From Nocardiopsis trehalosi NBRC 14201 (GTDB taxonomy: Bacteria; Actinomycetota; Actinomycetes; Streptosporangiales; Streptosporangiaceae), in the NCBI RefSeq assembly GCF_001552555.1, contig NZ_BCRK01000017.1:1-55573 (forward strand): DNA of 55,573 nucleotides. The letters run 5' to 3'. Within the stretch, counting starts at the first letter, position 1. Each line of letters opens with the position of its first letter. Made by a program: the position numbers and the translations under genes. Positions 12,341-16,450 of the stretch are shown here, in pieces. The notes under the pieces were generated by a model. That model did not search any database and was not told where the DNA came from. It saw nothing but the letters and a program-made list of their open reading frames with translations.

Positions 12341-13060
12341 TCACCCCCGGGAGGAGTCGTGGCATCCGCACGGGTGGTCGGCCGCGCCGTAGCCGTCGCT
12401 GAGCCGCATCCAGGAGAACGCCGGTTCCTGCGGTACTCCGGCCGGTGAGTTCTCCCAGTCCTCCTGCCGCCCGAACGGGGTGAGGTCGAGGAGGTCGAAG
12501 ACCATCATGAAGGGCTCCTCGCCTCGGGCGTGGGTCGACCAGGTGTGGAAGACGCGGTCGCCGCGACGCAGGAACACGCTGATCGCCTGGCGCTCCTCGC
12601 CGTCGACGGTCGCGCCGAAGTCGGTGTTGAACCCGTCGCCGACGGTCGAGTACCACGGCAGGCGCCACCCCATGCGGTCGCGGAAGGCGTACAGCCGGTC
12701 CACGGGGGCACGGGAGGTGAGCGCGAACGCGGTCCGCCGGGCGTGCAGGTGGGAGAGCGGGCCGATGTGCTCCGCCATCATCGAGCACCCGTCGCAGCCT
12801 TCGTTCCAGTCGGGGGCGAACATGAAGTGCTGGACGATGAGCTGCGGATGCCCGCCGAAGAGGTCGAGCAGGGTGACGCGCCCTTCCGGCCCGTCGAACG
12901 CGTAGTCCGCGCGCACTTCGACCATGGGCATGCGCCGGCGCGCCGCGCTGATCGCGTCCTTCATCCGGGTCAGGGCCTTCTCCTGCTGCAGCAGGACACC
13001 TCTGGCGTCGTTCCACGTGGCGCGGTCGACGATGGGCGGCCCGGCGTGCCCGGCGTTCAC
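12341..13060 (-). CDS. DUF899 thioredoxin-like family protein
   Basis: This 239-residue protein is a DUF899 member. RMPMVEVRADYAFDGPEG and LLDLFGGHPQLIVQHFMFAP open the thioredoxin-like domain, and DWNEGCDGCSM contains the conserved CxxC-type cysteines. YSTVGDGFNTDFG and FHTWSTHARGEEPFM complete it. The biochemical role is unknown; a redox function is inferred from the fold. The GTG start at 13060 overlaps the stop of the SRPBCC gene by 4 bp (GTGA), so it is the second gene of that operon, under the ArsR-type operator at 13518-13565. Confidence 0.88.
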   Translation of the reverse strand: MNAGHAGPPIVDRATWNDARGVLLQQEKALTRMKDAISAARRRMPMVEVRADYAFDGPEGRVTLLDLFGGHPQLIVQHFMFAPDWNEGCDGCSMMAEHIGPLSHLHARRTAFALTSRAPVDRLYAFRDRMGWRLPWYSTVGDGFNTDFGATVDGEERQAISVFLRRGDRVFHTWSTHARGEEPFMMVFDLLDLTPFGRQEDWENSPAGVPQEPAFSWMRLSDGYGAADHPCGCHDSSRG

Positions 13061-13533
13061 CGGTGGAACCCTTCGCGCAGGTTGATCCCGTGCTCCAGCC
13101 AGACCTTGAGCGCGGCGAGCATGCCGGTCCATCCCTCGCAGTTGCCGAAGGCGGCTTCGGCTCCCTCGGGGGTCGGCCGCCACGAGGTCTCGGTGATCGT
13201 GACCAGGGTCCGCGCACCGGCGTCGATCGGCTCGAACTCGAAGACCACCCTCGTCGTGCCGCCGGTGCCGGACGCCGCCCGGCCGCCCCACTCGACGACG
13301 ATCCGGTGCGGTGGGTCGGCCTCGACCACCGCGACGGGGAAGGCGCCGGGGAAGTCGGCGAAGTCCCAGACGACCTGCTCGCCGGCCTTCAGGCGCCCTC
13401 GGGCGCCGCCGGTGGCGAAGTACCGCGAGAGCTGCTCGGGGTCCGCCACGGCCTCGTACACCTGCGCGCAGGGACGTGCGACACGCCCCGACACGGTGAA
13501 CGAGAGCTCGTCCAGTACGCCATCAGGTTTCAT
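13057..13533 (-). CDS. SRPBCC/AHSA1-like ligand-binding protein
   Basis: The 158-residue protein has the Bet v 1-like SRPBCC fold of the AHSA1 group: VYEAVADPEQLSRYFA near the start, VVWDFADFPGAFPVAVVEADPPHRIVVEW in the middle (recorded here as two adjoining strands), and a C-terminal helix GWTGMLAALKVWLEHG. These proteins bind hydrophobic ligands and in actinomycetes are often paired with an ArsR regulator and a DUF899 gene, exactly as here. The first codons MKPDG arise from the palindrome that also encodes MKPDG of the divergent ArsR gene. The transcript is probably leaderless. Confidence 0.9.
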   Translation of the reverse strand: MKPDGVLDELSFTVSGRVARPCAQVYEAVADPEQLSRYFATGGARGRLKAGEQVVWDFADFPGAFPVAVVEADPPHRIVVEWGGRAASGTGGTTRVVFEFEPIDAGARTLVTITETSWRPTPEGAEAAFGNCEGWTGMLAALKVWLEHGINLREGFHR

Positions 13534-13565
13534 GTTGTAAACTTATAACATGAAACCTGATGGCG
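13518..13565. promoter_or_regulatory. 48-bp palindromic operator covering two divergent start codons
   Basis: Perfect 19-bp arms (CGCCATCAGGTTTCATGTT, 13518-13536; AACATGAAACCTGATGGCG, 13547-13565) flank a 10-bp centre, giving 22 of 24 paired positions. Both start codons lie inside the arms. The centre holds two interlocked -10 hexamers: TAAACT (13538-13543) for the plus gene and TAAGTT (13545-13540, minus) for the minus gene. Each is at -12 to -7 from its start codon. The likely ligand is the ArsR protein encoded at 13550. Confidence 0.8.
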
Positions 13566-13876
13566 CCAAGGACGCCGACGACGATCGGGTGTTCAAGGCG
13601 CTGGCCTCGCCGGTGCGCCGCCGCATGCTCGACGAGCTGAGGAAGGCCCCCCACACCACCGGATCGCTCTGCGCACTCCTGCCCGAGCTGGACCGCACGA
13701 CGGTGCTGCAGCACCTGCGGGTGCTCGAACGCGCGGAACTGGTCACCGGACGCAAGGTGGGGCGCGAGCGCCACCTGTCGCTCGCGCCGCTGCCGATCAA
13801 GCGCATATACGACCGCTGGATCAGCGACTACATGACCGCCGCGGTCGATCTCCTCGACCGCCTGGACACCGACTGA
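13550..13876 (+). CDS. ArsR-family transcriptional regulator
   Basis: The 108-residue protein is a winged helix-turn-helix of the ArsR type: RVFKALASPVRRRMLDEL (helices 1-2), TTGSLCALLPELDRTTVLQHLRVLERAELVTGRKVG (helix-turn-helix with recognition helix at about 48-62; the segment is given across its domain), then the wing and a C-terminal dimer helix. No metal-binding CxC is present, so it is not a metal sensor; ArsR proteins linked to SRPBCC/AHSA1 genes sense organic ligands or act as simple repressors. It is divergent from the SRPBCC-DUF899 operon by only 16 bp and probably controls both sides through the palindrome. Confidence 0.92.
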   Translation: MKPDGAKDADDDRVFKALASPVRRRMLDELRKAPHTTGSLCALLPELDRTTVLQHLRVLERAELVTGRKVGRERHLSLAPLPIKRIYDRWISDYMTAAVDLLDRLDTD

Positions 13877-13913
13877 CGACGGCCGACGCCGGCCGGCACC
13901 GCCGACACACCTC

Positions 13914-14573
13914 CTAAGCGGGCGCCCGGGAGGTGTCGGGGGCCGTCCACAGGCCGACGATCGCGTCGATGAGGCCGGTGGCGAGGTCCTCCCAGCTGGG
14001 CTGGAGGGTGGCGGCGTGCGCGGCGAGGGCGCGCTCGCGGTCCGCCGCCATCTGGGTGATGAGGTGGCGCGTCATGGCCGACCGCTCCTCGAACACCCCG
14101 GGGGGCAGGTCGGGCAGGCACCGGCTCATCCCCTCCCGCAGCGCCCGCATCGACGGGACGGCGGCGGAGACCTCCTCGGTCGTGAGCGCGTAGAGGGCGG
14201 GGTCGGCCGTCACCTGGGCGATGAACCGCGCGTACCAGCTCGGGTGGCCCAGGGTCGCCAGGTGGCGGGTGGTCGGGCGGACCGCGCAGGCCACCCAGTC
14301 CCGCAGGCCGGCGGAGTCGTCCATATCGGCCAGCAGCCCGTCGCGGATCGCCTCGATCCGCTCGGCGTGCCGGCGCACGATCGCGCAGATGAGGTCGGTC
14401 TTGGTGCCGAAGTGGTAGGTGACCGCGGCGTTGTTGCCCTGCCCCGCGGCCTCGCTGATCTGGCGGTTGGCCACCGCGTAGAGCCCGCGTTCGGCGAACA
14501 GCCGCTCCGCCGCACCCAGCAGCGCCTCCCGCGTCGCGGCCGCCCGCTCGTCGTGCCTCGTCCTGCCCGCCAT
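13914..14573 (-). CDS. TetR-family regulator next to the ABC-F gene
   Basis: The 219-residue protein has a TetR N-terminal domain: ATREALLGAAERLFAERG, then the helix-turn-helix VANRQISEAAGQGNNAAVTY and HFGTKTDLI. The C-terminal ligand-binding domain is all-helical and diverged. The ATG at 14573 was chosen because the domain follows at once; an ATG 3 codons earlier is possible. It is divergent from the ABC-F gene, and a 20-bp inverted repeat on the ABC-F promoter is a likely operator. Confidence 0.9.
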   Translation of the reverse strand: MAGRTRHDERAAATREALLGAAERLFAERGLYAVANRQISEAAGQGNNAAVTYHFGTKTDLICAIVRRHAERIEAIRDGLLADMDDSAGLRDWVACAVRPTTRHLATLGHPSWYARFIAQVTADPALYALTTEEVSAAVPSMRALREGMSRCLPDLPPGVFEERSAMTRHLITQMAADRERALAAHAATLQPSWEDLATGLIDAIVGLWTAPDTSRAPA

Positions 14574-14748: not shown

Positions 14749-14768
14749 TTTATCACACCCGTGATAAA
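14749..14768. promoter_or_regulatory. TetR-type operator overlapping the ABC-F promoter
   Basis: TTTATCAC and GTGATAAA (perfect 8-bp arms) flank ACCC. TAAAGT at 14765-14770 is the -10 of the ABC-F gene, at -12 to -7 from its ATG at 14777. A repressor bound here would block the promoter directly. Confidence 0.65.
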
Positions 14769-14776
14769 GTCCGCGC

Positions 14777-16450
<1,674 letters not shown>

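What the first reader, a model, noticed from the sequence alone, without database searches (positions are those of the whole stretch)
13518..13565. 48-bp palindrome that encodes the same N terminus for two divergent genes and contains both promoters
Seen: 22 of 24 base pairs of the palindrome match, both start codons are inside it, both proteins therefore begin MKPDG, and two -10 hexamers interlock in the 10-bp centre. Inference: one ArsR dimer or tetramer here would block both leaderless promoters and ribosome entry at both genes. Such extreme compaction of a bidirectional switch (16 bp between start codons) is unusual.
Basis: partly seen in the sequence, partly recalled or inferred. Interest (0 to 1): 0.6.

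Follow-up and report, generated by a model that had tools for sequence, protein, structure and literature searches.

The report
Two-way switch containing both start codons
A short mirror-image DNA element between two back-to-back bacterial genes appears to be repressor site, promoter and start codon for both genes at once, and its exact 16-letter spacing is kept across many distantly related actinobacteria.

Summary
The palindrome is real: 22 of 24 pairs match at 13518-13565, the best even palindrome in the window. Both start codons (13550 +, 13533 -) lie inside it and both proteins begin MKPDG.

Comparison shows two things. The conserved unit is a 22-bp core, CAT-16 bp-ATG, whose middle is an inverted repeat GTTGTA-N4-TAYAAC. 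In 86 of 87 loci outside Alphaproteobacteria with this ArsR/AHSA1 pair the start codons are exactly 16 bp apart; L095 is the exception. No Shine-Dalgarno-like 4-mer precedes either start (0 of 142), and TA sits at -12/-11 on both sides in 71 of 71 distinct elements. Of 32 more distant ArsR relatives, 22 have inverted repeats of the same 6-4-6 geometry upstream. In alphaproteobacterial relatives arsR still abuts the operator but the partner start is displaced. Best reading: an autoregulated bidirectional leaderless promoter whose operator ends are the two start codons.

The outer 13-bp arms that create the shared MKPDG are lineage-specific, probably copied from one arm to the other; this is inferred from few lineages. 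No transcript start or ArsR binding has been measured. New variant of a known kind.

The parts
13518..13565 (.). 48-bp palindrome, 22/24 pairs
13531..13552 (.). conserved 22-bp unit CAT-16 bp-ATG: both start codons plus operator
   Evidence: 86 of 87 non-alphaproteobacterial loci keep CAT-16-[AG]TG; the degenerate 22-bp pattern occurs once in the 6.38-Mb genome with up to 3 mismatches
13534..13549 (.). inferred ArsR operator, inverted repeat GTTGTA-AACT-TATAAC (6-4-6)
   Evidence: same 6-4-6 geometry upstream of 22 of 32 more distant ArsR relatives; half-site of the form GTKRTA in 70 of 71 distinct elements on the left
13538..13543 (+). predicted -10 hexamer TAAACT for arsR (-12 to -7 from ATG 13550)
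   Evidence: TANNNT toward arsR in 64 of 71 distinct elements
13540..13545 (-). predicted -10 hexamer TAAGTT for AHSA1 (-12 to -7 from ATG 13533)
   Evidence: TANNNT toward AHSA1 in 27 of 71 distinct elements
13550..13876 (+). ArsR-family regulator, 108 aa, start codon inside the element
   Evidence: Pfam HTH_20 48.3 bits (cut-off 27), HTH_5 32.1 (22); NCBIfam HTH_metalloreg 56.8 (55)
13057..13533 (-). AHSA1/SRPBCC-family protein, 158 aa, start codon inside the element
   Evidence: Pfam AHSA1 57.3 bits (cut-off 22.1)
12341..13060 (-). DUF899 gene; its likely GTG start (13060) overlaps the AHSA1 stop codon by 4 bp; probably co-transcribed (inference)
   Evidence: Pfam DUF899 271.1 bits (cut-off 27) for 12341-13063, a query with one extra codon; start read; homologue found in 5 of 54 related loci searched
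13518..13530 (.). outer left arm (AHSA1 codons 2-5 and one base), perfect inverted copy of the right arm
   Evidence: 13 of 13 pairs; lineage-specific
13553..13565 (.). outer right arm (ArsR codons 2-5 and one base)
   Evidence: 13 of 13 pairs; lineage-specific

Best explanation
The element is an autoregulated, bidirectional, leaderless promoter. RNA polymerase can open the AT-rich centre in either direction using overlapping -10 hexamers, and each transcript starts at or next to the A of its own ATG, so neither mRNA has a leader. The ArsR protein binds the 16-bp inverted repeat GTTGTA-N4-TAYAAC as a dimer; this site covers both -10 elements and its outer bases run into both start codons, so one dimer shuts off its own gene and the AHSA1 (and probably DUF899) gene together, until an unknown, probably non-metal signal releases it. 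The 16-bp start-to-start spacing is fixed because operator, two -10 elements and two start codons share the same bases. The outer 13-bp arms are a later, lineage-specific addition, probably made by copying one arm from the other during replication, which gave two unrelated proteins the same N terminus. Shown from sequence: anatomy, conservation, lack of Shine-Dalgarno-like 4-mers, 6-4-6 geometry. Inferred: ArsR binding, transcript starts, repression, release signal, origin of the arms.
For: 86 of 87 loci outside Alphaproteobacteria (71 distinct 52-nt elements; window included) have CAT-16-[AG]TG; both codons are in frame with both proteins in 85 of 86, the exception L116 having only a partial out-of-frame AHSA1 hit. 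Loci found by protein alone agree: 46 of 50 (the other 4 alphaproteobacterial) and 35 of 35. TA at -12/-11 in 71 of 71 on both sides. TANNNT at -12..-7 toward arsR in 64 of 71. Shine-Dalgarno-like 4-mers just upstream: 0 of 142 sides. The gene table of a Tsukamurella plasmid places both starts 16 bp apart. Of 32 more distant ArsR relatives, 22 have an exact 6-bp inverted repeat with 4-bp spacer within 110 bp upstream of the matched stretch; other spacers from 0 to 8 gave 1 to 12 of 32. A fused ArsR-SRPBCC relative has GTGATATTTTTATCAC directly before its ATG. The stretch DRTTVLQHLRVLE, taken to be the recognition helix from its place in the HTH (recalled), is nearly invariant in 85 ArsR proteins. 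In 16 displaced-partner loci (15 alphaproteobacterial plus L095) the arsR ATG abuts an operator-like 16-mer in frame 16 of 16 times, and AT is kept at the left edge in 14 of 16 although no in-frame AHSA1 start was found there.
Against: No transcript-start, binding or expression data. L095, from the same class, does not keep the AHSA1 start in the element. Toward AHSA1 the -7T is present in only 27 of 71 distinct elements, so in many relatives that promoter may be weak or start elsewhere. The predicted start distance is 17, one short of the 18 bp reported as commonest for bidirectional promoters (PMC12825309, PMC10268837, passages read). Counts are not independent: loci are related, some species were sampled twice, 6 of the 86 were found with the DNA pattern itself, the two genera were chosen because they held a pattern hit, and the scripts looked only at a spacing of 16, so another spacing would have shown as missing codons or wrong frames, not as a measured length.
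Confidence: 0.75

Rival explanations
1. Only arsR is driven leaderless from this element; the AHSA1 gene is transcribed mainly from a promoter inside arsR, and the element is a one-way promoter plus roadblock.
For: AHSA1-ward -7T present in 27 of 71 distinct elements against 64 of 71 for arsR.
Against: In the window both hexamers fit TANNNT. The AHSA1 start is fixed in 86 of 87 non-alphaproteobacterial loci with no Shine-Dalgarno-like 4-mer. No sigma-70-like promoter was found in 13000-14000, though the scan does not cover other promoter types. A leader crossing the palindrome could form a strong hairpin over the start codon (single-stranded DNA fold -24.5 kcal/mol, z -9.7; RNA not folded).
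Confidence: 0.15
2. The full 48-bp palindrome is the functional site: two ArsR dimers, or a cruciform, read the long arms.
For: Arms are perfect for 13 bp and remain symmetric in Streptomonospora although one position changed on both sides.
Against: Long outer arms were seen only in two related species (13 bp) and Micromonospora lutea (8 bp); without them the arms match at about chance (run length p 0.057, total matches p 0.65).
Confidence: 0.08
3. The shared MKPDG start is selected: two mRNAs with identical first 16 nt would escape the promoter and be translated equally.
For: Identical 16 nt at both predicted 5' ends in the window and in Streptomonospora.
Against: Second codons differ between the two genes in 53 of 71 distinct elements; the first ten residues are poorly conserved in ArsR.
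Confidence: 0.05

Closest known systems
Bidirectional promoters with symmetric -10 elements, e.g. E. coli PacrA/acrR
   Same: Overlapping -10 elements drive divergent transcription; at PacrA/acrR one gene encodes an auto-repressor of both (PMC12825309, PMC10268837, passages read).
   Different: Here both genes are predicted leaderless, start codons are part of the conserved element, even dyad symmetry gives a predicted start distance of 17 rather than 18, and the spacing is fixed across at least 19 named genera (titles).
Divergent leaderless gene pairs in Mycobacterium tuberculosis (prpD Rv1130 / regulator Rv1129c)
   Same: A divergent regulator/target pair with both transcripts mapped to start codons (PMC3898074, passages read).
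   Different: The passages seen give no shared -10 or operator containing both start codons.
ArsR/SmtB-family autoregulated operators
   Same: Winged-helix regulator next to an inverted repeat; 22 of 32 distant relatives show 6-4-6 repeats.
   Different: Mostly one cysteine, so no multi-Cys metal site; the operator abuts the start codon, where in the relatives it begins mostly about 25-57 bases before the matched stretch.
Template switching that homogenises inverted-repeat arms in coding DNA (yeast, PMC8604942, abstract read); coding palindromes in Nematomorpha mitochondria (PMC6649704, abstract read)
   Same: Inverted-repeat arms inside coding sequence; in yeast, arms made alike with several residues changed at once.
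   Different: Here the two arms belong to two different genes, so one copying event would rewrite another protein's N terminus.

Membership tests
Bidirectional promoter (symmetric -10 type) | two -10 elements on opposite strands sharing bases | tested here: met
   TAAACT 13538-13543 and TAAGTT 13545-13540 share 4 bp; in the family both sides fit TANNNT in 22 of 71
Bidirectional promoter (symmetric -10 type) | divergent TSSs 7-25 bp apart, most often 18 | not testable with these tools
   predicted distance 17 if both start at the A of ATG; TSS not mapped
Leaderless genes of actinobacteria | TANNNT about 7-12 bp upstream of a TSS located at the start codon, no Shine-Dalgarno | tested here: inconclusive
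   hexamer position and absence of Shine-Dalgarno-like 4-mers met in the window; TSS not measured
ArsR/SmtB transcription factors | ArsR-type winged helix-turn-helix | tested here: met
   Pfam and NCBIfam scores above cut-offs
ArsR/SmtB metalloregulators with cysteine site | two or more cysteines for As(III)/metal (recalled) | tested here: not met
   the window's ArsR has one Cys (C41); 1 Cys in 66 of 85, 2 in 16, 0 in 3 ArsR proteins of the set; Cys-free metal sites were not tested
SdpR autorepressor family (NCBIfam NF033789) | score at or above 100 bits | tested here: not met
   40.1 bits
AHSA1/SRPBCC proteins | Pfam AHSA1 domain above cut-off | tested here: met
   57.3 bits, cut-off 22.1
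ArsR dimer operator | ArsR binds the inverted repeat | not testable with these tools
   inferred from conservation and 6-4-6 geometry

The most novel reading that the evidence does not exclude
Operator, two promoters and two start codons are one indivisible 22-bp object, inherited and probably transferred as a unit across Actinomycetota, and its palindromic nature makes it a copying hotspot: in separate lineages and in opposite directions, one gene's first codons were copied onto the other, so two unrelated proteins evolve their N termini in concert (MKPDG/MKPDG in the window, MNPDG/MNPDG in Streptomonospora, MTGS/MTGS in Micromonospora lutea).
Probability: 0.35. Interest if true: 0.62.

Novelty: new variant of a known kind. 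Interest (0 to 1): 0.5.

Why it matters
If true, this is a very small regulated two-way gene switch: 22 bp hold repressor site, two promoters and two translation starts. It offers a compact test of how repressor, RNA polymerase and leaderless translation share bases, whether bidirectional promoters work at 17-bp spacing under even dyad symmetry, and whether palindromic regulatory DNA can rewrite protein N termini by template switching. It could also serve as a minimal switch for actinobacterial engineering.

Tried and rejected
General palindromicity of the outer arms was tested and not upheld. In 43 non-redundant loci the run of matching bases after the start codons exceeded re-paired arms (1.60 vs 0.89, p 0.0003), but total matches in 12 nt did not (p 0.15); without the window lineage the run effect was p 0.009, and without M. 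lutea as well p 0.057. A multi-Cys metal-sensing reading was set aside because 66 of 85 ArsR proteins have one cysteine. A phage origin had no support: no match to the AHSA1 protein in the phage collection at E 1e-10. Four of the 13 genomes with the 22-bp pattern (L089, L090, L093, L094) have no ArsR/AHSA1 hit nearby and were not counted. G383 was guessed to be Micromonospora, to sample M. lutea's relatives; 0 of 12 genomes matched. Literature, judged from listings only: ArsR with SRPBCC or AHSA1 and leaderless or operator terms gave nothing on this pair; leaderless bidirectional promoters gave one review; others (8 listed; 10 of 25 listed) showed no such element. Warman et al. 2021 is not held and is known here only through the two later papers.

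Full report
What is there. Window 13518-13565 holds a 48-bp palindrome with 22 of 24 pairs matching. Its score is the highest of the even palindromes in the window and above the best of each of 20 random resamples (18 vs at most 14). On the right an ArsR-family gene starts at 13550, on the left an AHSA1/SRPBCC-family gene at 13533 on the minus strand; Pfam scores exceed the cut-offs for both. The AHSA1 stop codon overlaps by 4 bp the likely GTG start of a DUF899 gene at 13060 (read; Pfam with a query one codon longer). The two mismatched pairs both lie in the centre; outside the start codons the arms match 13 of 13.

Conservation. A scan of one genome per species found 52 loci encoding relatives of the ArsR, 50 of them with a tblastn hit to the AHSA1 protein, all divergent. 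To these were added the window, seven loci from the pattern scan of 394 genomes (13 genomes matched), and 33 from genus searches in 118 and 149 genomes (7 and 28 matched; two loci already held were dropped). Four are alphaproteobacterial. Of the other 87, 86 have CAT, 16 bp, then ATG (83) or GTG (3); the exception is L095, from a genome of the same class, whose arsR ATG abuts the operator but whose AHSA1 start is displaced. Both codons are in frame with both proteins in 85 of the 86; in L116 the AHSA1 hit is partial and out of frame. The 86 include a MAG labelled Deinococcota and a Patulibacter MAG. Six of the 86 were found by the DNA pattern itself; protein-found loci alone give 46 of 50 (the rest alphaproteobacterial) and 35 of 35. 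Some species appear twice, so the 71 distinct 52-nt elements are the better number. The scripts tested spacing 16 only; another spacing would have appeared as lost codons or frames.

What is fixed and what varies. In the 71 distinct elements TA at -12/-11 is invariant on both sides; -7T is present toward arsR in 64 and toward AHSA1 in 27. TANNNT at -12..-7 is met on both sides in 22, only toward arsR in 42, only toward AHSA1 in 5, and on neither side in 2. In the window both sides meet it. None of five Shine-Dalgarno-like 4-mers was found just upstream of any of the 142 starts. The half-site is GTKRTA with a variable 4-bp centre. The ArsR residues before D11 vary, while DRTTVLQHLRVLE is nearly invariant in 85 proteins. 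The gene table of a Tsukamurella plasmid has the same two starts; it is automatic annotation, not a measurement.

Operator inference. Among 32 more distant ArsR relatives, 22 have an exact 6-bp inverted repeat with a 4-bp spacer within 110 bp upstream of the matched stretch, most often GTGACC-N4-GGTCAC (6) or GCAGCC-N4-GGCTGC (5); other spacers from 0 to 8 gave 1 to 12 of 32, and 10 had none with spacer 4. GTTGTA-N4-TAYAAC has the same geometry. One fused ArsR-SRPBCC protein (L032) has GTGATATTTTTATCAC immediately before its ATG. In the host genome the degenerate 22-bp pattern occurs once with up to 3 mismatches, so the regulon may be this locus alone.

A natural comparison. I examined 15 alphaproteobacterial loci (4 and 11 picked from the 43 plasmid records) and L095. 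In 16 of 16 the arsR ATG abuts the same kind of operator, in frame. In the 14 with an AHSA1 hit the nearest plausible in-frame ATG lies 17-66 bp beyond the operator; in L134 and L138 no AHSA1 hit was found. Where the record is annotated with an SRPBCC or 'ATPase' gene at that place (L135, L136, L140-L143), its start agrees with these distances. The left edge keeps AT in 14 of 16 although no in-frame AHSA1 start was found there. So these bases seem to matter for operator or promoter, and actinobacteria use them as a start codon as well.

The outer arms. Across 43 non-redundant loci the arms beyond the start codons are, apart from the window/Streptomonospora lineage (13 bases) and Micromonospora lutea (8 bases), about as alike as re-paired arms (run length p 0.057 without both, 0.009 without the first only). 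Excluding Micromonospora and the window lineage, 2 of 4,290 mismatched pairings gave a run of 8 and none more. In M. lutea the ArsR side equals that of its relatives while the AHSA1 side differs from theirs and copies it; in the window the AHSA1 side resembles some other AHSA1 starts (MKRDD, MTTDG) more than the ArsR side resembles other ArsR starts. This suggests copying in opposite directions. The tree groups the three Micromonospora loci at 0.99 support with M. lutea outside the other two (0.95), and the window with Streptomonospora at only 0.49. Few lineages carry this, so it stays an inference.

How unusual. In 200 kb of the Tsukamurella plasmid, 33 annotated divergent pairs had gaps from 15 to 1,310 bp (the gene table is incomplete, so some gaps are overestimates); two were under 20 bp, this locus (16) and rsmI/glycosyltransferase (15). 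In M. tuberculosis a divergent pair with two leaderless mRNAs (prpD and its regulator) is described and closely juxtaposed divergent promoters are called common (PMC3898074, passages read); E. coli acrR/acrAB is a bidirectional promoter with an auto-repressor (PMC12825309, passages read). The commonest reported TSS distance is 18 bp; even dyad symmetry with symmetric starts forces an odd distance, 17 if both begin at the A of ATG. The pair is patchy (pattern at ArsR/AHSA1 loci in 9 of 394 genomes), which fits horizontal transfer, but that was not tested.

Verdict. The thing is a new variant of a known kind: a bidirectional, autoregulated, leaderless promoter with start codons built into the operator. 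Binding, transcript starts and signal remain to be measured.

Noticed in passing
12341-13060 (-): DUF899 gene overlapping the AHSA1 stop codon; a DUF899 homologue was also found in L031, L033, L035, L037 and L041 (5 of 54 loci searched), and on an Ensifer plasmid (L134) the annotated divergent neighbour of arsR is DUF899, with no AHSA1 hit.
   Followed up: partly
14750-14767: Inverted repeat TTATCAC-N4-GTGATAA just before the gene starting at 14777 (looks like an ABC-F ATPase, by eye only) and upstream of the divergent TetR-type gene (14573-13914, -); likely another regulator site (read).
   Followed up: no
   Followed up: partly
L090 and L093, element near 1501-1522: CACGTTATAGTTTTACCACATG directly before the start of an acyl-CoA dehydrogenase-like gene in two genomes without the ArsR/AHSA1 pair at that place; may be a separate leaderless promoter (function named by eye).
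   Followed up: no
L146:28318-28332: Second very short divergent gap (15 bp) between rsmI and a glycosyltransferase gene on the Tsukamurella plasmid.
   Followed up: no
L134-L136, L140-L143: Alphaproteobacterial plasmids carry arsR with its ATG abutting the operator while the partner start is displaced; a VOC-family gene lies next to the SRPBCC gene in 3 of these 7 annotated records (L135, L136, L140).
   Followed up: partly
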